A stretch of 36,336 nucleotides of DNA from Thermoproteales archaeon (GCA_021163245.1 JAGGXB010000144.1:1-36336), one strand, 5' to 3'; positions 11,297 through 33,903 are shown, counted from the stretch's first letter. Translations and numbers: made by a program. The notes: generated by a model from the sequence alone, not told the origin.

Positions 11297-11314
11297 ATTT
11301 ATCTCCAGTTTAAT

Positions 11315-11560
11315 TTATCTAGAATGAGTGTTTGAACTTCCTACATGCTGTTGGTTAGGAGGCATCATGTTTGGATAATTCTGTTGTCTGTTCAATGTAG
11401 ATAGCCATTTAAGGAATAGGATTATTCCAACTATAGCTAGTACAGTGAATATAATAGTTAATATTCCTCCTATCAAAAACATTGTCCATGAATTCCACCA
11501 ACCAAAGGGACCATGCATACAACAAAAGCCTTCTACTATTATTTCTTCAAAATATTCCAT
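11315..11560 (-). CDS. Small single-span membrane protein in the copper operon
   Basis: An 81-residue protein with one long hydrophobic helix (about residues 25-55) preceded by a CCMHGPFGWWNSW stretch. The helix is followed by a polar tail rich in N, Q, P, M and H (NYPNMMPPNQQHVGSSNTHS). The Cys, Met and His content on both sides of the membrane fits metal handling. The position directly before copB suggests a partner or feeder of the pump, replacing the TRASH chaperone CopM of Sulfolobus copTMA clusters (inference). GGTGA lies eight bases before the ATG at 11560 and selects this start over the TTG at 11575. I do not recognise a named family. Confidence 0.6.
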   Translation of the reverse strand: MEYFEEIIVEGFCCMHGPFGWWNSWTMFLIGGILTIIFTVLAIVGIILFLKWLSTLNRQQNYPNMMPPNQQHVGSSNTHSR

Positions 11561-11586
11561 CAAACTAATCACCAAATAAATAAATC

Positions 11587-11597
11587 AAATATATAGT
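11587..11597 (-). promoter_or_regulatory. Candidate TATA box of the copB operon
   Basis: On the minus strand ACTATATATTT lies about 32 bases before the ATG at 11560, leaving room for a short leader carrying the GGTGA site. The rest of the 11576-11664 gap is very AT-rich, and no symmetric operator stands out. Confidence 0.4.
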
Positions 11598-11664
11598 ATT
11601 AATTTTATTATTTTCAATATTTAAAAAATAAAAATAAATTATTAAGATAAGGAAGATAATATAA

Positions 11665-12264
11665 TTATAATTTCTTAGTTTTTCTTATTTTCTTTTTGTA
11701 TTCTCTAAGGCATGTTGGACAGCAAAAATAATATTTTCTATTATAGAGGGTGTATGTTAATGGCTCAGATACAATTTTCTTTCCACAATAATCACATACA
11801 AGAGTAACTAATCCTAAACGAGCCAGTCTATCATATGTAATGTTTTTTCTTAGCCGCTTTGATGCTATTTTAATATCATACTTTATTTCCATTTTGGAAA
11901 ATTTTGAGATTATTTTCTGAAGATTTTTCATATCTTTTATTTCAACGAAACATATGATGTCTTTTGATCCCTCTAATTGATAAATCTCTGATACTTCCTC
12001 AATATTTTTAAGTTGTTCAAATATCTTATCCTGTTTCTCTGGTTTCAAAATAAAAACTATTGTGGTATAGTCAAGATATTTTTCTCCAATATTGATGGTA
12101 TATCCCTTTATGACACCAGTATTTATTAGTCTTTCCAATCTTTTTCTTACTGTTGGTCTACTAAGATTTAATTCTTTAGCTATTTCAGAAATAGGTGTTC
12201 TCGAATCTATAAGTAATATTCTGAGAATTTTACTATCTATTTCATCTAACACAGGGTTTTTCAC
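11665..12264 (-). CDS. copT: CopT-like copper-responsive regulator (Lrp-type HTH plus TRASH domain)
   Basis: A 199-residue regulator. The N-terminal AsnC/Lrp-type helix-turn-helix (about 6-55) is TPISEIAKELNLSRPTVRKR; a RAM-like beta-alpha segment (60-130) follows. The C-terminal TRASH metal-sensing domain carries C157-x2-C160, then the CC pair 181-182 and C185. This two-domain design is that of CopT (CopR) in Sulfolobus, which controls copper ATPase expression in response to copper. Its position on the same strand just upstream of the CopB operon fits that role. There is no ATG; adjacent TTG (12267) and GTG (12264) are possible starts, and GTG is chosen because a TATA element lies near 12281-12290. 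Confidence 0.88.
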   Translation of the reverse strand: MKNPVLDEIDSKILRILLIDSRTPISEIAKELNLSRPTVRKRLERLINTGVIKGYTINIGEKYLDYTTIVFILKPEKQDKIFEQLKNIEEVSEIYQLEGSKDIICFVEIKDMKNLQKIISKFSKMEIKYDIKIASKRLRKNITYDRLARLGLVTLVCDYCGKKIVSEPLTYTLYNRKYYFCCPTCLREYKKKIRKTKKL

Positions 12265-12280
12265 CAAAAATTAAAGAAGC

Positions 12281-12436: not shown

Positions 12437-12448
12437 TTGGAGATTATA

Positions 12449-13765
12449 ATGGGTATAGAAAAGAAAATGGATTATAAGAAAGAGATACTTAAAGAAATGC
12501 TTAAGATGTTGCATAAAGGTCAAAAAGTTAGTGAGATTAAAGAAAAGTATAAAGAGTGGTTGCTACAAGTGACTTCTTTTGAGATACCTATTATAGAACA
12601 AGAATTAATAAAAGATGGTATAGATCCTAGCGATATAGCGAGGCTATGTGACCTACATGTAGAGCTGTTTAGGGAATCTGTTGCTAATAAAACAGAGTTT
12701 AAAGATTTGATATCGGGACATCCTTTATACAACTTACTTAAAGAAAACGAATATATTCTCAAAGATGTTGAATTACTTAATCTTTATTTAGAAGCTTTGC
12801 GGTTCTCGGCAAATGATAAGAGAATAGAAATACTTGAAAAAATCAATGTCTTGATTAATGATTTATCTAGTATACGAGTACACTTTACCAAGCTTCAGAT
12901 GCTGATATTTCCATACATAGAAAAACGGGGCATAAAGGCTGTTCCAACAGTATTGTGGACGAAACAAGATCAAATAAAGCTTAAGTTAAAGCTTTTTGGA
13001 AAAATTGTTAAAAGGGCTTTATCTGATAAAGGAGAAGAAATAGATAAGATTATTAAAAATGGAAGAGATTTATCCAATTCTGTTATAGATATGATATTTC
13101 GAGAAAACAATATACTTTATCCGACGCTTAAAATTTTATTGTCTGAAGGTGAATGGGTAGCTATAAAACAACAGGAAGAACTGATAGGTTACTATAAAAA
13201 CATAGTTATAGACGATTTATGGAGATCTGGTTCTAAACCTATACATCCCTATCAAGTATTAGCTATTATAGATCCTGAAAAGGTTGAAAGACTTCCTTTG
13301 AGTGTACGGAAATTTCTAAGAAGTATAAAGGATGAAGATCAGGGATTTATTAGAAAAGAGGATATTAATTTAGAAACAGGCTATTTATCTCCTGTAGAGG
13401 TTGAAGCCATACTGAACAATCTTCCGATAGATCTATCATTCATTGATGAAAATGACAGGGTTAGATATTTTAATAATCCAAAAAAGGATAGGATTTTTCT
13501 AAGAACGGTATCTGTTCTTGGTAGAAATGTAAAGTATTGTCATCCGCCTAAAAGTGTCCATATAGTCGAGAAGATAATAAAAGAGTTTAAAGAAGGTAGA
13601 ATGGATAAGGCAGAGTTCTGGATACATATGGGAGATAAATTTATCTATATTAGATATTTTCCTGTTAGAGACAATAGTGGAAAATATATAGGAACATTAG
13701 AAGTTGTCCAGGACATAGCAAGGATAAAAACACTTAGGGGAGAAAAACGTTTATTGGATGATTAG
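12449..13765 (+). CDS. DUF438 protein with hemerythrin-like and PAS domains
   Basis: A 438-residue cytoplasmic protein. The N-terminal DUF438 helical domain (about 10-80) leads into a hemerythrin-like segment (about 135-210). There HFTKLQMLIFPYIEKRGI and VLWTKQD match the family pattern but lack several usual iron ligands. The C-terminal PAS domain (about 325-425) has the DUF438-typical YCHPPKSVHIVEKI and FWIHMGDKFIYIRYFPVRD. Such proteins are thought to sense redox, oxygen or small ligands; no output domain is present, so it probably acts on a partner. GGAG six bases before the ATG at 12449 selects this start over the TTG at 12437. It converges on the winged-helix gene eight bases downstream. 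Confidence 0.82.
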   Translation: MGIEKKMDYKKEILKEMLKMLHKGQKVSEIKEKYKEWLLQVTSFEIPIIEQELIKDGIDPSDIARLCDLHVELFRESVANKTEFKDLISGHPLYNLLKENEYILKDVELLNLYLEALRFSANDKRIEILEKINVLINDLSSIRVHFTKLQMLIFPYIEKRGIKAVPTVLWTKQDQIKLKLKLFGKIVKRALSDKGEEIDKIIKNGRDLSNSVIDMIFRENNILYPTLKILLSEGEWVAIKQQEELIGYYKNIVIDDLWRSGSKPIHPYQVLAIIDPEKVERLPLSVRKFLRSIKDEDQGFIRKEDINLETGYLSPVEVEAILNNLPIDLSFIDENDRVRYFNNPKKDRIFLRTVSVLGRNVKYCHPPKSVHIVEKIIKEFKEGRMDKAEFWIHMGDKFIYIRYFPVRDNSGKYIGTLEVVQDIARIKTLRGEKRLLDD

Positions 13766-14955: not shown

Positions 14956-15681
14956 TTATCCTCGCTTATCATGACTGGCTCCTTTTTGTCCTGTTTCTAT
15001 ATGAATGCTTATAATTCTGTTAAATTCTTCCTGAGATAGATATTGTGGAGAATAGGTTATGCCGTATTTTTTCATAGTGCTAACGAAGGAGCGAAGATGA
15101 TTTTGGGAACCTTTTATCAAATTATTAAAAATAAACTGTATATCCTGATTGTCTACTTTTGATAGATACTTTTTAATATCTACTATATCAACTTCCTCGA
15201 TTGATGCTCCGACCTGCAAAGCTTCCTCAAGAGACTTACTGCCTTTATTGACAAGTTTATTGTATAGTTCTTGTAGTTCTGGATTGGTAAATTTACCTAT
15301 TTCACCTACTACCGAGTCCTTTAACCCATATCTATCGATAAGCTGTTTTACTGCATCCATATGAATCTGTTCAGAACTAGCTATGTTTTTGAATATGGGA
15401 AGATTCCATTTCTCATAGAGTGTAAGATAAACATCTCTTGCAAGCTTTTCTTCTTCACGAATATAAAGTATTGCGTCAACTTCATCGTTATTCAAATCAC
15501 TTTTAGGAATTGAATTGATCGATGTATTTTCGTGATCTTTAATATGTTCTCCCTTCCTATAAGAATCGTAATGTGTGTTAGGAAATATGGCTTGACTTAT
15601 GTTAGATGAATATAGTGGAAAAGCAGCAATTATCAATCCGGCTAGTATCGCTATTATTAATACATATGTATATTTTATCAT
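14956..15681 (-). CDS. DUF2202 ferritin-like protein, exported or membrane-anchored
   Basis: A 241-residue protein. Residues 1-22 (MIKYTYVLIIAILAGLIIAA) are a signal or anchor helix, and a polar linker (25-65) precedes the DUF2202 domain (about 66-230). That domain is a ferritin-like four-helix bundle: E76-E78 in LYIREEEKLARDVY, E104 and H107 in SSEQIHMDAV, and the family's GSQNHLRSF near its end supply the likely di-metal ligands. DUF2202 function is unproven; rubrerythrin-like peroxide or metal chemistry is the usual suggestion. GGTGAG four bases before the ATG at 15681 selects this start over 15702. It is the first gene of the cluster running to 13774. Confidence 0.82.
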   Translation of the reverse strand: MIKYTYVLIIAILAGLIIAAFPLYSSNISQAIFPNTHYDSYRKGEHIKDHENTSINSIPKSDLNNDEVDAILYIREEEKLARDVYLTLYEKWNLPIFKNIASSEQIHMDAVKQLIDRYGLKDSVVGEIGKFTNPELQELYNKLVNKGSKSLEEALQVGASIEEVDIVDIKKYLSKVDNQDIQFIFNNLIKGSQNHLRSFVSTMKKYGITYSPQYLSQEEFNRIISIHIETGQKGASHDKRG

Positions 15682-15726
15682 ATTTCTCACCGGACTAAAC
15701 ATTGATGATTTATATTTTAAGGAATT

Positions 15727-21423: not shown

Positions 21424-22845
21424 ATGAATGTTATAATAATTATGTTGGATAGTCTTAGGCCCGATCACTTAGGATGTTATGGTAATCCTTGGATTGATAC
21501 GCCAAACATAGATGATTTTTCGAGGGAATGTTTAATATTTGATAGAGCTTATTCTGAAGGATTGCCAACATTACCGGTAAGAACGGCTTTATTCACGGGA
21601 AGATATACTTTAATGCGTAGAGGTTGGCAGCGTCTTGAACCGTCTGATAAACCGATAGCAGAGGTTCTCTGGGACGCAGGATATGATACAGCTCTTATAA
21701 GTGATACATATCATATGCATAAACCGTCTATGGCATATGAGAGAGGCTTTAATTATGTTAAGTGGATAAGGGGTCAGGAATCTGATCCTTATATTATAGA
21801 TGAAAATATCAAGGTTGATTTATCGAAATGGAGCACTAAAAATTATTTAACTGATTTCGACAGAATGGTTTTTACACAGTATCTTAAAAATATCCACTTT
21901 TGGACTAGTGAGGAAGATCATTTTATTGCACAAGTTGTCAAAGAAGGTATTAAATGGCTTAAAGGTCAAGTAGATAATGCTCATAAAGATAGGCTTTTCC
22001 TTTGGCTTGATAGCTTTGATCCTCATGAACCTTGGGATCCGCCATTTGAATATTATGAAAAATATGCGGTAGAGTATGATGGTTTACCTATAATTCATCC
22101 CTCAACTGGTGGTAAACGGGGAGGTTTTATAGAAAACTTTACTATTGATGAGGTTAGACATATTAGGGCTCAGTATGCTGGAGAAGTATCATTAGTAGAT
22201 AAGTGGATTGGTATCTTTTTTGAGAATTTAAAAAATCTAGGAATATGGGAAGATTCTCTCATAATATTGTTGAGTGATCATGGAGAACCTCTAGGCGAAC
22301 ACGGTATTATAAGAAAAGTTAGACCTTGGCCATATGAGGAGCTTTCCCGTATCGTTTTGATGATTAAGCCTCCTAAGGAATTGGGAGTTAAGCCGGGGCG
22401 TGTTAAAGCATTTGTACAAACTGTTGATATTGCTCCAACAATAATAGATATGTTAGAAATCAAAGGTGAAAGAAGTAGATGGACTATAAATCTTGAGTCA
22501 GAGGGTATTAGCTTGTATCCGCTGATTATGAAAGAAGATAATTTGGTTAGAGGCTATGCAATCTCAGGTCATTATGGAAGATCATGGAGCATACATAGTG
22601 AGGAATATTCGCTTTATATTTGGCCTGGACAAATGACGCCGTACACATTTGGGACAAATTATATTAAAGAACAAGAGAAAATGAACCCGGAACTTTATAA
22701 ACTTGATAGGAGCTATACTCCTCCGCGACCTGATAGATGGGAAATAGGGGATCAGCCTGAAGTAAGAAATATTTATGAGGAAGAGCATGAAATTGCGAAA
22801 CAGTTAGAATTGGATCTTAGAAGGGTTTTGACAAACATATTATAA
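21424..22845 (+). CDS. Sulfatase/alkaline-phosphatase superfamily hydrolase with Thr at the nucleophile position
   Basis: A 473-residue sulfatase-fold enzyme. Counting from the ATG, the first metal ligand is D9 (IIMLDSLRPDHLG). The family motif appears as TLPVRTALFTGR, with T49 exactly four residues before R53 where Cys or Ser becomes formylglycine in true sulfatases. The later ligand pair D285-H286 is in LLSDHGEPLGEHG. The metal site is therefore intact but the nucleophile is Thr, as in nucleotide pyrophosphatase/phosphodiesterases of the same superfamily. No signal peptide, so it is probably cytoplasmic. The ATG at 21424 is preferred over a TTG one codon earlier; TTAATAAA lies about 28 bases upstream. 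Substrate unknown; sulfate or phosphate esters of sugars fit the neighbourhood. Confidence 0.82.
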   Translation: MNVIIIMLDSLRPDHLGCYGNPWIDTPNIDDFSRECLIFDRAYSEGLPTLPVRTALFTGRYTLMRRGWQRLEPSDKPIAEVLWDAGYDTALISDTYHMHKPSMAYERGFNYVKWIRGQESDPYIIDENIKVDLSKWSTKNYLTDFDRMVFTQYLKNIHFWTSEEDHFIAQVVKEGIKWLKGQVDNAHKDRLFLWLDSFDPHEPWDPPFEYYEKYAVEYDGLPIIHPSTGGKRGGFIENFTIDEVRHIRAQYAGEVSLVDKWIGIFFENLKNLGIWEDSLIILLSDHGEPLGEHGIIRKVRPWPYEELSRIVLMIKPPKELGVKPGRVKAFVQTVDIAPTIIDMLEIKGERSRWTINLESEGISLYPLIMKEDNLVRGYAISGHYGRSWSIHSEEYSLYIWPGQMTPYTFGTNYIKEQEKMNPELYKLDRSYTPPRPDRWEIGDQPEVRNIYEEEHEIAKQLELDLRRVLTNIL

Positions 22846-23033
22846 ATTTTAGAGATTAATTAGTATAGGAAGGTAAAGATAGAAAACTGAAAATATTATA
22901 TTTTTCAATTGATATATTGATTAAGTTTTCAGTATTTACTATTAAAGTTTATAAGTTTATAGAGATAAAAGTTGAATACTGAATAGCTAAATATTAATTT
23001 GGGTTTCTTGATTATTTTCTGAGTTGATTATGT

Positions 23034-24902
23034 ATGGATTCCCTTAGTTATCTTAGGGAAAGAATGGATTATGACCATTATAAGAAGTTAGAAGAGATAG
23101 ACAATGATTTTCTCCATAAGTTTTTAGCTAAATATATTATGTTACTTAATCCTTCGAGTATTTTTGTATGTAGCGATAAAAAGGAAGATGAAGAGTATAT
23201 TAGGAGGAAAGCATTAGAATACGGTGAAGAAAGAGAGCTTAGGCAAAAAGATCATACGGTTCATTTTGATAATTATTATGATCAAGCACGTGATAAGAAA
23301 AATACTAAGATACTTGTTGATAAAGATGTTAGTCTACCTTTTATCAATACCCTAGAGAGAGAAAAGGGTTTAGAAGAAATTCATACACTAATGAGAAATA
23401 TTATGGTTGATAAAGAATTGTTTATATGCTTTTTTTCTCTAGGTCCAAAGAATTCGCCTTTTATGATTCCAGCTGTTCAGCTAACGGATTCAGCGTATGT
23501 TGCACATAGCGAGTTTCTATTATATAGAAATGCATATGATGTGTTTAGAGAAAATGGTAGAGGGTTAAGATTCTTAAGGTTTGTACATTCAGCGGGTGAG
23601 TTAGATGAGAGAAAAACCAGTAAGAATCTTGATAAGAGAAGGATATTTCTAGATGTTGATAATGAGATTGGTTTTGCTGTTAATACACAATATGGAGGAA
23701 ATACTATAGGTTTGAAGAAACCAGCGTTTAGGATGACTATAAATCGAGCTGTAAAAGAAGGTTGGCTTTCTGAACATATGTTTCTTATGGGTGTACATGG
23801 CCCTAATGGTAGAATAAGTTATTTTACGGGGGCATTTCCCTCGATGTGTGGAAAAACATCCACATGTATGCTTCCCCATGAACGTTTAGTTGGTGATGAT
23901 CTAGCTTTTATAAAAATTATAGATGGTGAGGCTAGGGCTGTAAATGTTGAGATTGGTGTTTTTGGTATCTTACAAGGCGTTAATGAGAAGGATGATCCAA
24001 TTATTTGGGAAGTACTTCATTCTCCTAATGAGATAATATTTTCAAATGTTCTTATACATGATGGTAGGCCTTATTGGAATGATATGGGAGTTGAAATACC
24101 TGAGAGGGGAGAGAATCATAGTGGTAAATGGTGGAAGGGGAAAAGGGATGCTGAAGGCAACGTTATACCTCCTGCGCATAAGAATGCTAGATTTACTGCT
24201 AGGCTTATTTATTTTAAAAATTTAGATAAAGAGGCTCTAGAGAATCCAAAAGGTGTAAAATTGAGTGGAATGATTTTTGGTGGTAGAGATGCAGATACTT
24301 GGCCTCCTGTATGTGAATCATTTAACTGGAGACATGGTGTTATATTAAAGGCTGCAGCTCTTGAATCTGAAACTACGGCAGCAACATTAGGTAAAGAAGG
24401 TGAAAGAAAGTTTAACTTGATGGCTATACTAGATTTTCTTTCGGTACATATCGGTAGATATATTGAAAATTATCTAGACTTTGGTAATAAACTGAGAGTT
24501 CCTCCCAGAATTTTTGCAGTGAATTATTTTCTCAGAGATAAGAACGGAGTTTTTCTAAATGATAAAGTCGATAAGAGTATATGGTTAAAATGGATGGAGT
24601 TACGTGTACATGATGATGTGGAAGCTATTGAAACGCCTATTGGATTTATTCCTATTTATGATGATCTTAGAATATTATTCAAAGAGGTATTAGGTAAACA
24701 ATATTCTAAAGAAGATTATGAGAAACAATTTATGATTCGGGTCCCTGAATTGTTAGCTAAAATAAACAGGGTAAGAAACATATATAGGAGAATTGATAAT
24801 ATTCCTAAAATATTATTTGAAGAGTTATATCTAGAGGAAAAAAGACTTAGAAATATTAAAGAAAAATTTGGAGAATATGTCTCTCCCTTCTCTTTTCTTT
24901 AA
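23034..24902 (+). CDS. pckG: Phosphoenolpyruvate carboxykinase (GTP)
   Basis: A 622-residue GTP-dependent PEP carboxykinase, the expected length. The kinase P-loop GAFPSMCGKTS is at 266-276 with the reactive C272 and K274-T275. LVGDDLAFIK supplies the Mg/Mn-binding acidic pair, and CESFNWRHGV matches the guanine-binding loop of the GTP class. It interconverts oxaloacetate and PEP in the cytoplasm, driving gluconeogenesis or, in some archaea, anaplerosis. It lies between a sulfatase-like gene and an MFS transporter on the same strand but with a 188-base gap before it, so it probably has its own promoter. Confidence 0.95.
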   Translation: MDSLSYLRERMDYDHYKKLEEIDNDFLHKFLAKYIMLLNPSSIFVCSDKKEDEEYIRRKALEYGEERELRQKDHTVHFDNYYDQARDKKNTKILVDKDVSLPFINTLEREKGLEEIHTLMRNIMVDKELFICFFSLGPKNSPFMIPAVQLTDSAYVAHSEFLLYRNAYDVFRENGRGLRFLRFVHSAGELDERKTSKNLDKRRIFLDVDNEIGFAVNTQYGGNTIGLKKPAFRMTINRAVKEGWLSEHMFLMGVHGPNGRISYFTGAFPSMCGKTSTCMLPHERLVGDDLAFIKIIDGEARAVNVEIGVFGILQGVNEKDDPIIWEVLHSPNEIIFSNVLIHDGRPYWNDMGVEIPERGENHSGKWWKGKRDAEGNVIPPAHKNARFTARLIYFKNLDKEALENPKGVKLSGMIFGGRDADTWPPVCESFNWRHGVILKAAALESETTAATLGKEGERKFNLMAILDFLSVHIGRYIENYLDFGNKLRVPPRIFAVNYFLRDKNGVFLNDKVDKSIWLKWMELRVHDDVEAIETPIGFIPIYDDLRILFKEVLGKQYSKEDYEKQFMIRVPELLAKINRVRNIYRRIDNIPKILFEELYLEEKRLRNIKEKFGEYVSPFSFL

Positions 24903-24946
24903 TTAAAATTAATATATATTTTCCTAACTACTTTACTAGGGATCAA

Positions 24947-26236
24947 TTGAAGCTTAAACATGCTATAAGTGTGACTTTAATACTTTTTATATTCTTAGTA
25001 TTACATGAGGCTGATAGATTTTTAATATCTCCTTTAACGCCACAAATAATGAAAGAGTTTAGGATTTCTCATACTGAAATGGGTGCTGTATTCACTTTAA
25101 CTATCGTTGTTTCAGCTTTATTATTTCCCATTTGGGGTTATTTATTTGATAAGTTTTCTCGTAGATTTCTAATAACGATAGCTGGTCTGATATGGGGATT
25201 TACTACTTGGCTGAATGCATTAGCACAAAATTTTATCCAACTTATGATAACTAGATCGTCAACAGGAGTCGATGATGCTTCAACAGTAGGTATCTATAGT
25301 TTGATTTCGGATTATTTTAGGCCTGAGAAAAGAGGTAAGGTAATAGGATTGTTAAACTCGTCCAGTGCTTTGGGTGCTATACTTGGAACTCTTCTCGGGC
25401 TTTCTATAGGTATACAGATGGGATGGAGATATACTTTTTATATTACGGGTTCTGTGGGAATAATTGTTGCTTTAGCTGTATATTTTATAGTTAAGGATGT
25501 TCCTAGGGGTAGTTCTGATCCTGGTCTAGAAGGTGTATTAAGAGAAGATATATTTAGATTTAATATAGAAACAGCGAAAAAACTTCTTAAGAAAAAGTCT
25601 ATGATTTTGCTATGTTTACAAGGTTTCTTTGGTGTGTTTCCGTGGCAGGTTTTGACGTTTTGGATGATTAAATATCTTATAGATGAAAGGAATTTTACGA
25701 CTGATCAAGCTATGACTGTAATGGTTTTGCTCTTGGTTTTTCTCTCTATAGGCTATATATTGGGTGGGGTTATCGGAGACTTTGTCTTTAGAAAGACTAT
25801 TAGAGGAAGGGCTATTATTGTGTCTATAGTAGTATTTGCAAGTGCTCTAATGATATATATCACATTTAGTATTCCTTACAAAGATGTTCTGGGTTTTACA
25901 TTAATGTCTTCTATCACTGCTATAGTTATACCTATGGCTGCAGCGAATGTAGGCGCGTTGGTTTTTGATATTACTGAGCCGGAAGTTAGAAGTACCGCTA
26001 GAAGTATACTTAGAGTGTTGGAGAATTCGGGTTCAGCTCTTGCTCCGTTAGTAGCTGGTATATTAGCTGATATGTATAGTCTTCATTTTGCAATACTATG
26101 GATATCTGTTTCTACATGGCTTCTTTGCGGTATTTTCTCGCTTTTCTTAGTGGTTGTTGTAAGAAGTGATATTGAGAGACTATACGAATTGCTCAGGGAA
26201 AGAGGTAGAAAAATAAAGAGTGGTGGAGTTTATTGA
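24947..26236 (+). CDS. Major facilitator superfamily transporter
   Basis: A 429-residue MFS protein with about twelve membrane helices. The loop 2-3 signature is seen as GYLFDKFSRRFLITIAG (pattern G-x3-D-x2-G/S-R-R), and a long central cytoplasmic loop (about 185-215) separates the halves. It should import or export a small organic solute by ion coupling; the subfamily (organic acid or sugar acid porters) is a guess. Start is TTG with AGGGA five to six bases upstream. The downstream nitrilase-family gene overlaps its stop codon (TTGA), so the two are translationally coupled, suggesting that the amidase acts on the transported compound. Confidence 0.85.
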   Translation: MKLKHAISVTLILFIFLVLHEADRFLISPLTPQIMKEFRISHTEMGAVFTLTIVVSALLFPIWGYLFDKFSRRFLITIAGLIWGFTTWLNALAQNFIQLMITRSSTGVDDASTVGIYSLISDYFRPEKRGKVIGLLNSSSALGAILGTLLGLSIGIQMGWRYTFYITGSVGIIVALAVYFIVKDVPRGSSDPGLEGVLREDIFRFNIETAKKLLKKKSMILLCLQGFFGVFPWQVLTFWMIKYLIDERNFTTDQAMTVMVLLLVFLSIGYILGGVIGDFVFRKTIRGRAIIVSIVVFASALMIYITFSIPYKDVLGFTLMSSITAIVIPMAAANVGALVFDITEPEVRSTARSILRVLENSGSALAPLVAGILADMYSLHFAILWISVSTWLLCGIFSLFLVVVVRSDIERLYELLRERGRKIKSGGVY

Positions 26237-27168
26237 AAATAAAAGCTGTCGCTGTCCAAATGGAATTTAGGCTTAACGATTTCTTGTCGAGTAGGAATTT
26301 TAGGGAAAGGATATTTGATATAATGAAGAGAATCGATAAAATGGTAGAGCTAAATGAGAGATCCCTTGTTGTTTTTCCTGAGGATGTAGGGTCTTTTCTA
26401 GTGTTTCTAGACGAGGATGTTTCATCATTTGACGGGTTGGAAAAAGCTGCTAAAGCTATTATAAAGAAAAATTTTTTTACGCTTTTATTAAAAAGAATTC
26501 GATATAATGTAGGATGGATCACTAGTTTTATCCTGAGTAAATATAGGAAGATATGGGATAGTTATTACGGAACATTTTCTGATGTTGCAAAGGAATACGG
26601 ATGTTATATTGTTGGAGGTTCTCTATTAATTCCAAGGATAGAAGTCCAAAAGGGGAAGGTTAACAGAATTTCAAATAGAATCTATAATACTAGTTATCTT
26701 TTTGGAACTAAAGGCGAGATCTTAGGCGTTCAGAGAAAAGTTCATCTGATTGAACTAGAGGAAAAATTAGAGATTTCTTCAGCGTCTTTAAGTGAATTAA
26801 GAGTTTATAAAACAAGTATTGGTAGAATAGGGATAGCTATATGCTATGATGCTTTCTTCAAAGATGTTGTGGAGAAATTAGTATTGCAGGAAACAGACAT
26901 ATTAGTTCAGCCGTCAGCTAATCCAGAATTATGGGATGAAAGATTGGAAAAGGAGTGGCCTACTGGATGCTGGCAAGCCGTTCAGAAATATCCGACATTA
27001 AAATATGGTATTAATCCGATGGGCGTTGGCAAGATATTTGATCTAGTATTTGAAGGAATGTCAAGTATAATAGCTAAAAGAGATAAAACAAAGGACAAAA
27101 GCGGATACCTTGCGAAGTCTACGTCAAGAAATAAAGAAGAAATAATTTATGCTGATATCCTGTTGTAA
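26233..27168 (+). CDS. Carbon-nitrogen hydrolase (nitrilase superfamily)
   Basis: A 311-residue nitrilase-superfamily protein with the complete catalytic triad: E50 (VVFPED), K169 (QRKVHL) and C204 (ICYDAFF). A helical insertion at about 65-105 (AIIKKNFFTLLLKRIRYN) is longer than in typical omega-amidases. It hydrolyses an amide, carbamoyl or nitrile bond; the substrate is unknown. The TTG start overlaps the TGA stop of the MFS gene, and GGTGGAG lies four bases before it, so it is expressed with the transporter. It converges on the glycoside hydrolase-like gene with a five-base gap. Confidence 0.85.
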   Translation: MKIKAVAVQMEFRLNDFLSSRNFRERIFDIMKRIDKMVELNERSLVVFPEDVGSFLVFLDEDVSSFDGLEKAAKAIIKKNFFTLLLKRIRYNVGWITSFILSKYRKIWDSYYGTFSDVAKEYGCYIVGGSLLIPRIEVQKGKVNRISNRIYNTSYLFGTKGEILGVQRKVHLIELEEKLEISSASLSELRVYKTSIGRIGIAICYDAFFKDVVEKLVLQETDILVQPSANPELWDERLEKEWPTGCWQAVQKYPTLKYGINPMGVGKIFDLVFEGMSSIIAKRDKTKDKSGYLAKSTSRNKEEIIYADILL

Positions 27169-27173
27169 CAAAA

Positions 27174-29144
27174 TTATTTTTCTATGACTACTATTGAATG
27201 TATTTTTATCTTTGATATGTTTAATTTAAGCTCATTGTTTTCTGAAGTATAGTTTAATTCTTCATTACTAGGTACAATATATATATTTCTGGGAGTTTTT
27301 GACATTTTAACTTTGATGTTTATTGGTCCTATTGGAGGTATATGGTCTATTAGTGAATAATTTGGCGAGGTTTGTTTTCTTGAGAGATTTATTAAATGTA
27401 TCAAAAGCTTATTATCTTTTTTTCTTAGAACAACATCTAAGTAAGGTGGTGCATTTACTTTGACCTTTGGACTAAATACTTTTTCTATAATATTCCCAAT
27501 AAATTCTCTTATAGCAGGTATATGCCAGTTGAAATATATTTTCCCTAATGGTCCATAGATTGCTGATATTGTTCCTTTACCTAAATGGTTGAGTGATGCT
27601 GAACATTTCCCTCTTTTTCTCAAATCTATGGAATAGTACTTTAAACCTATACATTCTGCTGTTTCGATTTCTATATTTTGCCATAGTCCTCCAATCCATC
27701 CTAGAACATCTTGGGAAGGAACATATACATTTTTTTCTAATTGTGGTTCGTTGAGAAACTTTACTCCAAGATAATCTTTAAATAATGAGGCACTATATGC
27801 TCCTGTTATAAGAAGATTTCCACCTTTCTCTACATAAGAGAGAAGTTGTTTTAAGCTATTTTCACTTAACTCTTTCCATTCAGGAAGTATAACTAATGGA
27901 TACTCCATGATCCTTCCAATATTATACTCATCTAGAATATCTACTGAATAATGTAGTTCAAGTAATGCATGAAGCATTCCTTTAAAAGCATCATGTGTTT
28001 TGTCTACTATACCAAATATTCTTCCTTTCTCGTCAAGTTTACTAAAATGTTCAGTGTTTGAAAAAATTATAGCTATTTGTGGCACTGTTCTAGTTTTATA
28101 AGAAAAATCTTTTCTAATATTACAAAAATTAGAAACTTTGGCTAGAGCTTTAATCATCCATTTATCTATCCATCCAGATCGGGTAGGTTTATAGTAGACT
28201 TGAAATCCCCCTCCCTGTGAAATAACTATTGCTGCTTCTTGTAACATTTGTGTGATAGGTTTAAACAATCTAGCATTATCTTCTCCTAGATTAAATCCCC
28301 AGGTCATTAAGTCCCAGGTTTTTTCTTTTGAAGCGAGATATCTTGCTTCAACTCTAAAACGGTCTATTGCGTTTTGTGGTGTTACGTCACCTGAGAGATA
28401 ATCTATATTTATATCTACTGGTAGGGGCGAAATAGTAGAATACAGCCAGTTTACTGTGATTTTAAAATCTGGTTTTATATCGTGAACAGCCATGACATAT
28501 TTTTTTACATATTCTAAGTATTTTTTTCTTTGAAACTCCATCCATTCTTTCCAATAGGGATCTTTGGGGGAGAGTGGAATTTCTTTTACATTATATGTCT
28601 TCTGGAATTCTTCTATAGCCTTTTTACTCCAGTCAGGTTTTACGGCCCAGCTGTCTCCATCTATCCATGCTCCATCTATATCATATTTCTCTATAAGCTC
28701 CTTTAGTTGAGGTATCATTATTTTATCTACATAGGGGCTGAAAAAACTTAATATCTTTGTATCATGTGAACCATCGGGGTTAACTATAGTCCATTCAGGA
28801 TAATTTTTTGCTGCTATCTCGTCCCATGCACCAGAATAATGTACGTATAAATCTATGTTATATTTTTTAGTTATCTTCCTCCATATTGCTAGAGAATCCT
28901 TTTTTATTCCCGGTGAAGCCCATCCAATTTTTGTAGGATACCCTGTATATCCTGGATGTCCTTTACAATCATATTGAATATAGTCTGGTTTTACATTTTC
29001 TAAGAGAGTCTTTATCATCTCCTCTGTTATATCTGCTCCTAAACAAGTATCATTTTCTCGTGGATGTAAATCAAAATGTAAACCAAAGTATCTTGATATC
29101 TTTTTGCTAGAATGATGTTTTGAAACAGACATAATATAAGGCAT
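27174..29144 (-). CDS. Putative glycoside hydrolase, GH29-like barrel with GATase-like domain
   Basis: A 656-residue cytoplasmic protein. The barrel (about 15-330) begins FGLHFDLHPREND, as alpha-L-fucosidase-related families do (FGxFxHW). DIDGAWIDGDSW has D162 at the place of the GH29-type nucleophile. A Rossmann/GATase-like domain (about 355-470, VDILDEYNIG, YPLVILPEW, YVEKGGNLLITG) resembles the trimerisation domain of GH42-type enzymes. A beta-rich C-terminus (560-656) follows. The combination suggests a retaining glycosidase of an unassigned family; the sugar is unknown. It is divergent from the alpha-mannosidase gene with only 94 bases between them, pointing to joint control. Confidence 0.68.
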   Translation of the reverse strand: MPYIMSVSKHHSSKKISRYFGLHFDLHPRENDTCLGADITEEMIKTLLENVKPDYIQYDCKGHPGYTGYPTKIGWASPGIKKDSLAIWRKITKKYNIDLYVHYSGAWDEIAAKNYPEWTIVNPDGSHDTKILSFFSPYVDKIMIPQLKELIEKYDIDGAWIDGDSWAVKPDWSKKAIEEFQKTYNVKEIPLSPKDPYWKEWMEFQRKKYLEYVKKYVMAVHDIKPDFKITVNWLYSTISPLPVDINIDYLSGDVTPQNAIDRFRVEARYLASKEKTWDLMTWGFNLGEDNARLFKPITQMLQEAAIVISQGGGFQVYYKPTRSGWIDKWMIKALAKVSNFCNIRKDFSYKTRTVPQIAIIFSNTEHFSKLDEKGRIFGIVDKTHDAFKGMLHALLELHYSVDILDEYNIGRIMEYPLVILPEWKELSENSLKQLLSYVEKGGNLLITGAYSASLFKDYLGVKFLNEPQLEKNVYVPSQDVLGWIGGLWQNIEIETAECIGLKYYSIDLRKRGKCSASLNHLGKGTISAIYGPLGKIYFNWHIPAIREFIGNIIEKVFSPKVKVNAPPYLDVVLRKKDNKLLIHLINLSRKQTSPNYSLIDHIPPIGPINIKVKMSKTPRNIYIVPSNEELNYTSENNELKLNISKIKIHSIVVIEK

Positions 29145-29238
29145 GTTTTCTCTTACTATTATTTTTAATGCATGACTAAAGGTATTATTTAGACTGTTAG
29201 GAGAAAGACTTTTTTAGTAGTTAATTTAAAGTGTGTTT

Positions 29239-32200
29239 ATGCAGCTCTTTGTCTATTATGATGAAAAGAATCCTGGATCGTGGATAAGTAAGGAAGAGAG
29301 TTCAATAATAAAAGAAATCTGTCTCAAAAGAGGAGCAAAAATAATAGATTCTGTATCTCTACCGAGTATTCTTGATAGTGAACCGAGCATTATTGTCTTA
29401 GCTCATGATCTTCTACCCGAGAATACTCTTCATTTGTTAAGAAAGTTTATGGAAAAAGGAGGTATCATAATATGGATTGGTGATATACCTTTTATAAAAG
29501 TGCTTTCTCAGAGTACTATTAAATCGATGGGTAAAGAAGGAGGAATAAAAGTATTAGGTTTTTATCCTTCGACGAGCTGGATTACAGATATAGCATTCCC
29601 AACGAGAGAGGGAGAGGACTATGGGTTAGTCTTTCCAACTCTTTCTATAAGGTCGATTGATAGATCGCTTATTGATATTGCTCTTTCAATAAATAGTGAG
29701 GGAGAAGCTTCTTCATGGATAAAGAGAATAGGTAAAGGTATGTTTATAAGATTATTGGATAGAGGGCGTCCCATAAAGGGATCAGGATATTTTATATTTA
29801 GTATATTTCTTGATTCTCTTCTGACCAAGATAGGTGTTAGTTATACTAGAGCAGCATGGACTGATAAGGTTAAGGAAAAAGCTAAGGATATAAGAAATAA
29901 GGGCCAGGCAATAGCGTTTGATATAGTTTTGTCTTCTGTGTTCGATGTTGGGAAAAGTCCTGAAAGTGTTATTAAAGAAATACTTCATGATAAGAACATA
30001 AATGTGGCTGTAGAGAAATTAGCTAAAGATATAGAGAAGGGACTGTCTATAGGTGATACTTTTTGGATTGGGCAAAGTCATCTAGATTGGGCATGGCTTT
30101 GGACATGGGAAGTTAGTATTGAGAAATGTAGGTTTACATTGAAACAAGCTTTAGAACATATGAAAAAGTATCCAAACTTTAAATATACACAGAGTACAGC
30201 TGCTTATTATGAATGGATGGAGAAATATTATCCAGATATCTTTGAAGAAATAAAGAAAAGAATTGGAGAGGGTAGATGGGGACTGGTGGGTGGTTCATGG
30301 GTTGAACATGACTCAAATATTCCATCTGGAGAAAGCATGATAAGGCAAAGATTGTATGGACAGAGATATTATTTATCGAGATTTGGTAAAATAGCTGATG
30401 TTGAATGGATGCCTGATACCTTTGGTTTTACCTGGACCTTGCCACAGATAATGCTTAAGAGTGGACAGAAATACATGTTTACTACTAAAATGGATTGGTC
30501 ATATGTTAATAAATTGCCTTTTAGGATATTTTTGTGGGAAGGACTTGATGGAAGCAAGGTTTTAGCTTATCAAGGAAGATTTGCTCACGGATACTATCTT
30601 AGTCAAGAAGTTTATAACGAGTTTGCTTCACGGACTCCTTTAATGAAAGGTACATATGACTCAGTGCATTTACCCAAAGAGAAGACTAATATTCATGTTA
30701 AAGAATTAGGTATGATTTATGGTGCTGGAGACGGTGGTAGAGGCCCTACTCCCTTGGAGGTTATGGCTGTAGATAAATTATCTAAGCTTTTCTCAAAGGT
30801 TAAACAGGTAACTGGAGATGAATATATGCATCTTCTAGAAAAATATGTGGATAAGTTACCTACTTGGAGAGATGAGCTATATTTAGAAAATCATAGAGGT
30901 ACATATACTGCTCAATGGATAATTAAATCGCTTAATAGAGATGCAGAAAATTTGTTGGTTACTGCTGAAAAAGCTGCTGTTATAGCGTTTCTTAATGGAT
31001 ATACTTATCCTAGTGATGATTTTAGAGATGCTTGGAAATGGTTGTTATCGTATCAGTGGCATGATCCTTTACCTGGAAGTGCTATAAAGGAGGTTTATGA
31101 GGAGGCAAAGAGAGACTTCAATACTTATATCTTTCCAGTAGTAAGAAAAATTTTAGAAGATTCGATAACTAGTCTTCAAAGTGGAGATAGAGAAAATATT
31201 GTAGTCTTTAATCCTTTATCTTGGGAGCGTAGAGATATTGTTGAAATAGAATATAAGGGATATATTCCAGAGACTGATGCCCAATTAACATTAGATGGTA
31301 AATTAGTATTTGCCGTCGATATAGGGCCAGTAAGATTTAAGACGATGAAGATAAGAAAAGGTAAACCTTCTTTACCGACTATAAAAATCGTTGATAAAGA
31401 GGTAGAGATAGAAAATAAATATTATAAATTAAAAGTAAGTGTTGAAGGAGTATTAAGCCTATATGATAAAGAGTTAAATAAAGAATTTCTAAAGGATAAG
31501 ATCTCTATTGTTTCATATTATTGTAAACCTGCTCAATGGGGTAATTGGAATATAATGCCTGGATACTGGAAGCATAGAGAAGATGTGTTTCGAGCTAGAA
31601 GAATATTGTTTATTGAGGGTCCTGTATACTCTGCAGTTATTCTTGAGGGAGAGATCGATGGATCTCCAGCAATATGGGAAATTAGATTATATAGTGAGAT
31701 AAAAAGAATCGATTTCCTGATATGGTTAGATTGGAGAAAAACAGATAGGATTGTGAAAATGTGGGTTCCAACCAGTCTAGATGCAGAATATGTTTATTCA
31801 TCTATACCTTTTGGTGTGTATCCTAGGCCTTTTAAACCAAGAACAAGATTTGAGAAAGAGAAATGGGAGTTTCCCCATCAGAAATGGGTATGTATAAGTG
31901 ATAATAACTATGGGGTTAGTATAGCGAATTGGCCAATATATGGTAGTGGAATAATCGAAGGAGTATACGGATTGACTCTTGTTAAGAGCGGGACAGAACC
32001 TGATCCTTATTGTGATATATATCCGCACATGTTTAGAATTTCTTTTAATACATTTGCTGGTTCATGGAAGGAAGGTATGCCTTGGAGACTTGGAGACGAG
32101 ATTAATTACCCCTTATATTCTCAATATATTAAAGGAAACATTGATGTTTCTTTCATCGAAAAAGTTGAGCCTAAAAATATAGTTATAGAAGCTGTTAAGA

Positions 32201-32415
32201 AACATGAAGATAGTAATAATATAGTTCTAAGAGTATATGATGCTACAGGTGAGGGAGGAAGGGTTAAGATAGTATTTCAAAAAAAGATTAGAGAAGCATA
32301 TGAGCTAGATTTTATCGAACTTAATACCTTGGCAAATGACATAGATACTGAAGACTCTTCTATAATATTTGAGATGAAACCTTGGGAGATTAAGACAATA
32401 AGTATTTCTTTCTAA
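29239..32415 (+). CDS. GH38 alpha-mannosidase
   Basis: A 1058-residue family 38 alpha-mannosidase, about the usual length for archaeal and bacterial members. After a 240-residue N-terminal domain, the catalytic zinc motif HLDWAW has H281 and D283. WMPDTFGFTWTLPQI gives the nucleophile D393, with HGYY and WHDPLPGS downstream as further zinc and substrate-contact elements. The C-terminal 450 residues are the beta-sandwich domains. It is cytoplasmic (no signal peptide) and releases alpha-linked mannose, so imported mannosides or internal glycans are the substrates. A GTG at 29233 is in frame, but the ATG at 29239 is preferred. A sulfatase-like gene and an SDR follow closely on the same strand. 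Confidence 0.93.
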   Translation: MQLFVYYDEKNPGSWISKEESSIIKEICLKRGAKIIDSVSLPSILDSEPSIIVLAHDLLPENTLHLLRKFMEKGGIIIWIGDIPFIKVLSQSTIKSMGKEGGIKVLGFYPSTSWITDIAFPTREGEDYGLVFPTLSIRSIDRSLIDIALSINSEGEASSWIKRIGKGMFIRLLDRGRPIKGSGYFIFSIFLDSLLTKIGVSYTRAAWTDKVKEKAKDIRNKGQAIAFDIVLSSVFDVGKSPESVIKEILHDKNINVAVEKLAKDIEKGLSIGDTFWIGQSHLDWAWLWTWEVSIEKCRFTLKQALEHMKKYPNFKYTQSTAAYYEWMEKYYPDIFEEIKKRIGEGRWGLVGGSWVEHDSNIPSGESMIRQRLYGQRYYLSRFGKIADVEWMPDTFGFTWTLPQIMLKSGQKYMFTTKMDWSYVNKLPFRIFLWEGLDGSKVLAYQGRFAHGYYLSQEVYNEFASRTPLMKGTYDSVHLPKEKTNIHVKELGMIYGAGDGGRGPTPLEVMAVDKLSKLFSKVKQVTGDEYMHLLEKYVDKLPTWRDELYLENHRGTYTAQWIIKSLNRDAENLLVTAEKAAVIAFLNGYTYPSDDFRDAWKWLLSYQWHDPLPGSAIKEVYEEAKRDFNTYIFPVVRKILEDSITSLQSGDRENIVVFNPLSWERRDIVEIEYKGYIPETDAQLTLDGKLVFAVDIGPVRFKTMKIRKGKPSLPTIKIVDKEVEIENKYYKLKVSVEGVLSLYDKELNKEFLKDKISIVSYYCKPAQWGNWNIMPGYWKHREDVFRARRILFIEGPVYSAVILEGEIDGSPAIWEIRLYSEIKRIDFLIWLDWRKTDRIVKMWVPTSLDAEYVYSSIPFGVYPRPFKPRTRFEKEKWEFPHQKWVCISDNNYGVSIANWPIYGSGIIEGVYGLTLVKSGTEPDPYCDIYPHMFRISFNTFAGSWKEGMPWRLGDEINYPLYSQYIKGNIDVSFIEKVEPKNIVIEAVKKHEDSNNIVLRVYDATGEGGRVKIVFQKKIREAYELDFIELNTLANDIDTEDSSIIFEMKPWEIKTISISF

Positions 32416-32487
32416 TTCTCTTTGTCTAATAATAAATTAAGTTTTTTATCCGGTTTTAGCTATACTAGCTCTTAGAGGTTAGATAAA

Positions 32488-33903
32488 ATGTCTAATAGAC
32501 CCAATATTTTGTTAATTACTACTGATCAGCATAGAGGCGATCATCTAAGTATTGCTGGACATCCTATAGTTGAGACACCTAATCTTGATTCGTTTATTAA
32601 CCATGGAGCATATTTTCCGAATGCTTATTCAGAAATTCCTTCAACAACTGGTGCTAGACTATGTATGTTGAGAGGACGTAAGAGTTATTATAGTGGATTA
32701 ATAGGATATGCTGCGGTTGAATGGAATGAACATAATTCTTTAGCTGATGTACTAGCAAGAAACGGATATCATTGTATTAATGTTGGTTGGCGTAATCTAC
32801 ATCCTAGACGTAAGCTATATGGTTTTCATGTCGTTATTCCTCATGATTTACGTGAAGGTGTAGATGATTATTTAGAGTGGTTGAAAAACGTCGTGGGACC
32901 AGATGCTAATGAGTTTGGTCATGGTTTGGATCCAAATGGATGGACTGCACGTCCATGGCATCTAGAAGAAAGATTCCATCCAGTGGTCTGGACAGTTAAT
33001 AAGACGTTGGAGATGTTGAGAAAGAGGGATCCTACTCGTCCATTTTTTGTCTGGATGTCTTTTCATAGACCTCATTCTCCATATGACCCACCAAGATCTT
33101 TCTGGGACATGTATATAAATCGTGAATTACCTGAGATTCCTGTGGGTGAATGGGCTAAGAAATATGAAGTTCCTAATCCGGGACTGCCTATAACTGCTTG
33201 GTATGGAAAATTTAATCCAGAGCAGACACATAGAATGAGGGCAGCATATATGGCTATGATCTCGTTTATAGACTCTCAGATCGGTAGACTTTTGACTTCT
33301 ATGAGAAGGGAGCTAGGTGTTTTCGATAATACTCTAATTATATTTGTTTCTGATCATGGAGATATGATGGGTGATCATAATCTTCATAGAAAAACATATG
33401 CTTATGAAGGGTCTGCACGAATACCTTTCTTGATAAGATATCCTAAGGATTGGGATCTTCCTTCTGGTGTTTTTAACCATGTAGTTGGTTTACAAGATAT
33501 TATGCCAACTATACTTGATGCTGCAGGTATAAAGCCTGTAGAAGGTATTACTGGAAGAAGTGTGTTTGATGCTATTCGTGGTAAACCTTGGAGAAATTTT
33601 ATTCATGGTGAACATTCACCATGTTATGGTCTTCAAGAAGCTATGCATTATTTGACTGATGGACATGAAAAATATATATGGTTTCCAGCGAGGAATGAGG
33701 AAATGTTATTCAATTTAGATAAGGATCGGAGTGAGCTCTATAATCTTGCTACAAATCCCGAGTACTCTGATCGTGTAAAATATTGGAGAAACAAACTTAT
33801 AGAGCTTTTATCTAAACGTGGTGATGGTTTCTCAGATGGTAAAAAGCTTATTCCTAGAACTGAATGGTGGAGTCCAATAGTTGAAGAATATCTTAAAAAA
33901 TGA
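32488..33903 (+). CDS. Sulfatase-superfamily hydrolase, second copy, also with Thr at the nucleophile position
   Basis: A 471-residue enzyme of the sulfatase/phosphonate monoester hydrolase group. The first metal site is TDQHRGD (D13-Q14). The motif region is STTGARLCMLRGR, where T53 occupies the Cys/Ser position four residues before R57, and the usual Pro is G55. The late ligands D289-H290 are in FVSDHGDMMGDHN. D-Q followed by D-H is the metal set of phosphonate monoester hydrolase-like members. As in the other copy, no formylglycine precursor exists. GAGGT eight bases before the ATG is the ribosome site. It is 72 bases after the alpha-mannosidase and 41 before the SDR, probably one transcription unit. 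Confidence 0.82.
   Translation: MSNRPNILLITTDQHRGDHLSIAGHPIVETPNLDSFINHGAYFPNAYSEIPSTTGARLCMLRGRKSYYSGLIGYAAVEWNEHNSLADVLARNGYHCINVGWRNLHPRRKLYGFHVVIPHDLREGVDDYLEWLKNVVGPDANEFGHGLDPNGWTARPWHLEERFHPVVWTVNKTLEMLRKRDPTRPFFVWMSFHRPHSPYDPPRSFWDMYINRELPEIPVGEWAKKYEVPNPGLPITAWYGKFNPEQTHRMRAAYMAMISFIDSQIGRLLTSMRRELGVFDNTLIIFVSDHGDMMGDHNLHRKTYAYEGSARIPFLIRYPKDWDLPSGVFNHVVGLQDIMPTILDAAGIKPVEGITGRSVFDAIRGKPWRNFIHGEHSPCYGLQEAMHYLTDGHEKYIWFPARNEEMLFNLDKDRSELYNLATNPEYSDRVKYWRNKLIELLSKRGDGFSDGKKLIPRTEWWSPIVEEYLKK

What the first reader, a model, noticed from the sequence alone, without database searches (positions are those of the whole stretch)
21424..33903. Two sulfatase-fold enzymes with threonine instead of the formylglycine-forming residue
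Seen: in both proteins (21424-22845 and 32488-33903) the residue four positions before the motif Arg is Thr (TLPVR and TTGAR), while the metal-binding D and DH motifs are intact. Known: type I sulfatases and phosphonate monoester hydrolases need Cys/Ser converted to formylglycine, while NPP-type members of the superfamily use a plain Thr nucleophile. Inference: these may be Thr-nucleophile phosphodiesterases, or a sulfatase type independent of formylglycine-generating enzyme. Finding the same change in two divergent copies within 12 kb argues against random decay.
Basis: partly seen in the sequence, partly recalled or inferred. Interest (0 to 1): 0.66.

Follow-up and report, generated by a model that had tools for sequence, protein, structure and literature searches.

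The report
Sulfatase-like enzymes with threonine nucleophiles
Both genes encode enzymes folded like sulfatases that carry a plain threonine where sulfatases need a specially converted cysteine or serine; they belong to two separately evolved, widely conserved threonine lineages, so they probably cleave phosphate esters, or sulfate esters by an unproven route, without the usual activation step.

Summary
Both proteins (21424-22845; 32488-33903) are confident sulfatase folds with Thr (T49; T53) at the formylglycine (fGly) position and metal-ligand motifs intact. All 12 sulfatase-type genes of this archaeal genome have Thr; the genome has no FGE and no anaerobic maturase. Among 46 archaeal genomes with readable sulfatase-fold genes, Cys-type enzymes occur in exactly the three with a true anSME. 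The fGly-contacting Lys is missing from 113 of 114 distinct Thr sequences and present in 48 of 50 Cys/Ser ones.

The two genes are not the same event. Gene 1 belongs to an old all-Thr branch. Gene 2 lies inside the fGly sulfatases, beside S1_46 (BT1918, TM 0.93), in a clade spanning archaea and many bacterial phyla with concerted swaps (C>T, P>G, K>W, H>N, S/A>E), kept even in genomes full of Cys-type sulfatases: a secondary loss of fGly, not decay.

Best reading: cytosolic Thr-nucleophile phosphoesterases in sugar-catabolic gene sets. The substrate is inferred; an fGly-independent sulfatase is not excluded. They are neither NPP members nor fGly sulfatases. Thr-bearing PF00884 proteins were noted in 2016; the derived clade and the maturase correlation appear new.

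The parts
21424..22845 (+). Gene 1: sulfatase-fold enzyme, motif T49-L-P-V-R53, member of an all-Thr archaeal branch that also occurs in bacteria
   Evidence: PF00884 131.5 bits; AF2 pLDDT 92.5; 59-71% identical to its nearest homologues in order and class relatives, all readable ones Thr
21568..21570 (+). Codon of T49, predicted nucleophile of gene 1 (ACA)
   Evidence: invariant; N-cap of helix 50-58
21448..21450 (+). D9, metal-ligand motif of gene 1
   Evidence: nearly invariant
21703..21705 (+). D94, at the position of the fGly-contacting Lys of sulfatases
22276..22281 (+). D285-H286, metal-ligand motif of gene 1
   Evidence: invariant
32488..33903 (+). Gene 2: sulfatase-fold enzyme, motif T53-T-G-A-R57, member of the TTGAR/GWRN clade derived from S1_46-like fGly sulfatases
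   Evidence: NF010322 arylsulfatase 522 bits, cut-off 481; Foldseek TM 0.93 to 7oz8 BT1918 S1_46; trees
32644..32646 (+). Codon of T53, predicted nucleophile of gene 2 (ACA)
   Evidence: 26/26 T in clade versus 52 C + 1 S in sister sequences
32650..32652 (+). G55, replacing the Pro/Ala of CxPxR
   Evidence: 26/26 G versus 48 P/5 A
32788..32796 (+). W101-R102-N103, replacing K-M-H of the GK-M-H motif (K and H contact the fGly)
32524..32529 (+). D13-Q14, metal-ligand motif of gene 2
   Evidence: kept in both clades
33073..33075 (+). H196, substrate-side His kept from sulfatases
   Evidence: invariant in Thr and Cys/Ser clades
33352..33357 (+). D289-H290, metal-ligand motif of gene 2
33391..33393 (+). 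K302, substrate-side Lys kept from sulfatases
29233..32415 (+). GH38 alpha-mannosidase, 72 bases upstream of gene 2, same strand
   Evidence: PF01074 214 bits
33945..34685 (+). Short-chain dehydrogenase, 41 bases downstream of gene 2
   Evidence: an SDR also lies near gene 2's relative in L071
34769..35608 (-). Sugar isomerase/epimerase-like TIM barrel (AP_endonuc_2)
24947..26236 (+). MFS transporter (best NCBIfam match D-galactonate type, below cut-off), between the two genes

Best explanation
Both proteins are soluble enzymes of the sulfatase branch of the alkaline phosphatase superfamily that use an unmodified Thr as nucleophile, probably with one divalent metal, so they need no formylglycine maturation. 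Shown: Thr placement, conservation, absence of known maturases, loss of the fGly-contacting Lys, and two separate Thr lineages. Inferred: the metal-polarised Thr attacks a charged ester, the conserved His/Lys pair on the substrate side stabilises the leaving group, and water resolves the covalent Thr adduct. Because the fGly route (loss of the second hydroxyl's proton, then elimination) is impossible for Thr, the likeliest substrates are phosphomono- or phosphodiesters of sugars or polyols in carbohydrate catabolism. Gene 1 is from an old all-Thr branch; gene 2 descends from an S1_46-like fGly sulfatase that swapped Cys/Ser for Thr and rebuilt the nucleophile side of its site.
For: Census: all 12 sulfatase-type genes of the genome are Thr; no FGE and no anSME, the two radical-SAM hits resembling NirJ2/AhbD. 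Among 46 archaeal genomes with readable genes, Cys types occur only in G024, G115 and G122, the only ones with a true anSME. Lys position: K in 48/50 Cys/Ser(+Arg) sequences, 1/114 Thr sequences. Gene 2 clade: concerted C>T, P>G, K>W, H>N, S/A>E with metal residues, H196 and K302 kept. Trees and AU test. Models begin at the first core strand, so no signal peptide or membrane domain. Thr clades coexist with Cys-type sulfatases. Neighbours are sugar catabolic. Literature: in phosphonate monoester hydrolases the Lys is Tyr and the His is Thr/Asp, Thr being called a signature of proficient phosphodiesterases (PMC5488252); in S1 a His takes the proton that ejects sulfate (PMC10154612); choline sulfatase K102L lost all detectable activity (PMC5870055); LtaS and MCR-1 are precedents for a Thr nucleophile with a metal (PMC4192460, PMC5031297).
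Against: No activity or bound metal was measured. The substrate-side His/Lys of gene 2 are those of a sulfatase, so sulfate esters remain possible. Unmodified Cys and Cys-to-Ser sulfatases still turn over slowly (PMC6189696, PMC5870055), so plain-nucleophile sulfatase chemistry is not impossible. Gene neighbourhoods differ between lineages and do not name a substrate. Whether one or two metals bind was not tested.
Confidence: 0.62

Rival explanations
1. fGly-independent sulfatases: the Thr attacks sulfur, forms a sulfo-threonine and water hydrolyses it, so these archaea desulfate sugars without a maturase.
For: Gene 2 keeps the S1_46 fold (TM 0.93), H196 and K302 and scores above the arylsulfatase cut-off; the genome makes activated sulfate (ATP sulfurylase and APS kinase beside Thr-type L011); [quoted passage not shown]
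Against: The Lys (and in gene 2 the His) needed by sulfatases are lost in step with Cys; no Thr sulfatase has been demonstrated (SulfAtlas, PMC5066984); Cys-type sulfatases reappear exactly where anSME does, as if Thr enzymes cannot do that job.
Confidence: 0.2
2. Transferases: the Thr takes a phosphoryl-alcohol or similar group from a donor and passes it to a sugar or lipid acceptor, like LtaS or phosphoethanolamine transferases.
For: LtaS and MCR-1 use a Thr nucleophile with a D/H metal site (PMC4192460, PMC5031297).
Against: No membrane domain; the LtaS model scores 26 and 19 bits against a cut-off of 970; neighbours are catabolic, with glycosidases and sugar dehydrogenases.
Confidence: 0.1
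3. Catalytically dead relatives (pseudo-enzymes or decaying sulfatases) that only bind substrate.
For: The formylglycine precursor and its Lys/His partners are gone compared with sulfatases.
Against: Thr with synonymous codon variation is fixed in 26/26 members across two domains; metal residues are intact; dN 0.10 with dS saturated; Thr has precedent as a nucleophile in the superfamily.
Confidence: 0.05
4. An unknown maturase modifies the Thr (for example to a ketone).
For: The genome has radical-SAM/SPASM proteins.
Against: Their best models are NirJ2/AhbD-like; Thr oxidation would give a ketone, never shown in this setting (PMC5066984); the Arg of the CxPxR recognition motif is lost in about half of the Thr sequences; Thr clades occur across many phyla.
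Confidence: 0.03

Closest known systems
S1_46 sulfatase BT1918 (PDB 7oz8), 3-O-desulfation of 3S,6S-GlcNAc (PMC10154612)
   Same: Fold (TM 0.93, 37% identity), metal residues, substrate-side H196 and K302 (gene 2)
   Different: Thr for the fGly precursor, Gly for Pro, Trp for Lys, Asn for His
Enterococcus faecium arylsulfatase (PDB 9koq) and NCBIfam NF010322
   Same: TM 0.90; gene 2 scores 522 bits over the NF010322 cut-off of 481
   Different: CVPAR and GKMH motifs are TTGAR and GWRN in gene 2
Phosphonate monoester hydrolases/phosphodiesterases (PMH, PehA; PDB 4uph, 2vqr)
   Same: Sulfatase-branch fold (TM about 0.7), loss of the sulfatase Lys, as PMHs have Tyr there
   Different: PMHs use fGly; NCBIfam PehA scores 127 and 159 bits against a cut-off of 900
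LtaS and EptA/MCR phosphotransferases
   Same: Unmodified Thr nucleophile with a metal held by D/H residues
   Different: Membrane-anchored transferases; far below their model cut-offs
Uncharacterised Thr-bearing PF00884 proteins noted in SulfAtlas (PMC5066984)
   Same: Thr in place of Cys/Ser
   Different: That note gives no lineage, maturase correlation or derivation from fGly enzymes

Membership tests
fGly-dependent sulfatases, SulfAtlas S1 | Catalytic signature with [CS]-x-[PA]-x-R | tested here: not met
   Published pattern (PMC5066984) fails in both genes and in 26/26 of gene 2's clade
fGly-dependent sulfatases, SulfAtlas S1 | Second signature G-Y-x-[TSCV]-x3-G-K with the fGly-contacting Lys | tested here: not met
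   Both genes fail; D94 in gene 1 and W101 in gene 2 at the Lys position
fGly-dependent sulfatases, SulfAtlas S1 | Maturase (FGE or anSME) in the genome | tested here: not met
   0 FGE; best anSME score 62 bits, cut-off 349; assembly is 93% complete
fGly-dependent sulfatases, SulfAtlas S1 | Alkaline-phosphatase fold with sulfatase metal residues | tested here: met
fGly-dependent sulfatases, SulfAtlas S1 | Descent from within the family (gene 2) | tested here: met
   Thr clade lies inside a 41-row group of Cys/Ser sulfatases plus itself (99/99); sulfatase activity itself untested
NPP (PF01663) | Best and full-length match to PF01663 | tested here: not met
   32-33 bits over about 38 residues, against 131-142 bits for PF00884
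NPP (PF01663) | Two-zinc site | not tested
   No coordinates or metal data to inspect
NPP (PF01663) | Thr nucleophile | tested here: met
   Alignment and model placement
LtaS/EptA phosphotransferases | N-terminal membrane domain and family-model score | tested here: not met
   Core strand starts at residue 2 or 6; LtaS 26 and 19 bits, cut-off 970
PMH/PehA | fGly nucleophile and family-model cut-off | tested here: not met
   Thr; 127 and 159 bits, cut-off 900
NCBIfam NF010322 arylsulfatase | Score over cut-off (gene 2) | tested here: met
   522.1 against 481
NCBIfam NF010322 arylsulfatase | Arylsulfatase activity | not testable with these tools
   needs an enzyme assay

The most novel reading that the evidence does not exclude
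Gene 2's clade are true sulfatases that gave up formylglycine: they cleave sulfate esters with a plain Thr, a sulfatase chemistry not known before, spread across archaea and bacteria that also keep the fGly version.
Probability: 0.17. Interest if true: 0.82.

Novelty: new variant of a known kind. Interest (0 to 1): 0.56.

Why it matters
Formylglycine is usually treated as the defining mark of this sulfatase branch. A clade nested inside it that dropped the modification and rebuilt the nucleophile side in a concerted way is a natural experiment on why fGly exists, with close Cys-type relatives (about 40-49% identical) as controls. It also shows that a large set of archaeal genes annotated as sulfatases is probably misnamed, and gives a rule to tell: Thr without the Lys of G-K-x-H, set against Cys/Ser with it and a maturase in the genome.

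Tried and rejected
A conserved operon partner for gene 2's clade was sought by clustering neighbours of 25 relatives; only close Chloroflexi shared neighbours, so no substrate could be named. Thr as mere compensation for lack of a maturase was rejected for gene 2's clade: its bacterial hosts are rich in Cys-type sulfatases; 18 of 20 have PF03781 matches, but that family includes non-FGE proteins (L185 scores best with GldK, below its cut-off; an archaeal hit is EgtB), so the sulfatases themselves are the better evidence. Nesting of the Thr clade among its nearest Cys relatives was not significant on its own (AU p 0.32); the claim of secondary loss rests on more distant Cys sulfatases lying outside (all Cys/Ser as one clade rejected, p 0.0006; larger tree). 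A regular expression for the GK motif proved too loose and was replaced by an alignment column. Literature searches found no characterised Thr-type sulfatase, but the library lacks most subscription journals.

Full report
OBSERVATION. The two reading frames are real and both are PF00884 sulfatase-fold proteins. In gene 2, phmmer aligns T53 with the nucleophile of two solved S1 sulfatases, 7oz8 and 9koq. In confident AlphaFold2 models the Thr begins the nucleophile helix in both proteins. The metal motifs are intact.

NOT TWO BUT ALL. The genome (1.95 Mb, 93% complete) has 15 PF00884 matches in 14 genes. All 12 sulfatase-type genes, one of them a fragment, have Thr; of two phosphodiesterase-like ones, one has Thr and one Ser. 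The genome has no FGE match. The best match to the anaerobic maturase model scores 62 bits against a cut-off of 349, and the two hits resemble NirJ2/AhbD-type heme enzymes.

A NATURAL TEST. Across the class (81 genomes) FGE is absent and only G024 has an anSME over the cut-off (432 bits). G024 is also the only one with Cys-type sulfatases: CTPSR, CAPAR and CSPTR, beside at least ten Thr types. In a sample of 151 genomes of the phylum, anSME over the cut-off occurs only in G115 and G122, and these again are the only ones with Cys types, one lying next to the anSME gene. Over 46 genomes with readable genes the match is 3 of 3 against 0 of 43 (Fisher p 7e-5). G115 and G122 are one genus, so the three are not fully independent, and some genomes are incomplete. 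PF03781 hits occur in 18 genomes of one archaeal family; the one tested is EgtB, not FGE.

THE SITE IS REBUILT. In S1 sulfatases a Lys and a His of the G-K-x-H motif lie next to the formylglycine, and a His takes the proton that lets sulfate leave (PMC10154612; PMC5488252). In 50 Cys/Ser sequences with the motif Arg, the Lys is present in 48; in 114 distinct Thr sequences it is present in one distant, doubtfully aligned case. Gene 2's clade shows this sharply against its sister sequences: C/S to T, P/A to G, K to W, H to N and S/A to E, all fixed or nearly so, while D13, Q14, R57, H196, D289, H290 and K302 stay. Both published S1 signatures (PMC5066984) fail in both genes.

TWO ORIGINS. With motif columns left out, gene 2's clade (100/100) groups with Cys/Ser sulfatases and gene 1 with the other Thr proteins. 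One clade of all Thr sequences is rejected (AU p 0.001). Adding 22 diverse Cys sulfatases gives the same picture: 41 rows of Cys/Ser sulfatases plus gene 2's clade on one side and 21 Thr rows on the other (99/99), with gene 2's clade deep inside the former. Its exact place among the nearest Cys relatives is open (p 0.32). So gene 2's Thr is best read as a secondary replacement of a formylglycine precursor, and gene 1's as a member of a branch that may never have had one. The root is not inferred by the method; this direction rests on parsimony.

SPREAD. Gene 2's clade was found in Bathyarchaeota, Latescibacterota, Armatimonadota/Zipacnadia, Poribacteria, KSB1, Chloroflexi, Planctomycetota, Spirochaetes and WS1, with third-base variation at the Thr codon. 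Ten of those bacterial genomes that were checked have 3 to 53 strong PF00884 genes each, and Cys types with the G-K motif were read in every one. Thr is therefore a maintained alternative, not only a way round a missing maturase.

CONTEXT. Gene 2 lies between a GH38 alpha-mannosidase and a short-chain dehydrogenase on the same strand, with a sugar-isomerase-like gene beyond. Other Thr paralogues in the genome lie near Gfo/Idh/MocA dehydrogenases, sugar isomerases, GH38, a GH78 rhamnosidase, MFS transporters and amidohydrolases. This suggests carbohydrate catabolism but does not name a substrate.

MECHANISM. Shown: Thr placement, conservation, loss of the Lys, absence of known maturases. Inferred: metal-activated Thr attack, leaving-group help from the kept His/Lys, hydrolysis of the Thr adduct by water. 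Phosphoesters are favoured because the fGly elimination route is closed and because phosphonate monoester hydrolases, the phosphodiesterase members of this branch, have also lost the Lys and His. Sulfate esters are not excluded: unmodified sulfatases can turn over slowly.

NOVELTY. Thr-bearing PF00884 proteins were noted in 2016 with the warning that such proteins cannot be called sulfatases without experiment (PMC5066984). What appears new is the derived clade inside the formylglycine sulfatases, the concerted changes, and the link to maturase presence. The paper library is incomplete, so earlier description elsewhere is possible.

Noticed in passing
L182 (own genome, G000 contig 131) 1501-6183: A Thr-type PF00884 gene (L011) lies beside ATP sulfurylase, APS kinase and a PF01663 phosphodiesterase, a set that would make PAPS and suggests sulfated products in this archaeon.
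   Followed up: partly
L219 1453-3900 (G115) and its counterpart in G122 (L218): An anSME sits next to a Cys-type sulfatase (CSPSR) whose second motif is GFQH rather than GKxH, an odd sulfatase lacking the usual Lys.
   Followed up: partly
L245 1489-2808 and similar hits in 18 genomes of one archaeal family: A PF03781 match in this archaeal family scores as ergothioneine synthase EgtB (483 bits, cut-off 360), a caution for anyone using PF03781 as a marker of FGE.
   Followed up: partly
L190 (G088, KSB1 bacterium): A gene 1-like Thr enzyme (TIPAR with DTYH) is encoded in a bacterium close to Cys-type sulfatases, so gene 1's branch is not only archaeal.
   Followed up: partly
window 9146-12267: A YHS-domain P-type ATPase beside a TRASH-domain regulator, which looks like a copper export pair.
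   Followed up: no
window 12437-13765 and 14956-15702: A DUF438-hemerythrin-PAS protein and a DUF2202 protein, possibly an oxygen or iron stress module.
   Followed up: no
window 27174-29144 (-): A 656-residue protein with weak matches to several glycoside hydrolase models (GHL10, fucosidase, GH42 trimerisation domain), perhaps an undescribed glycosidase.
   Followed up: no
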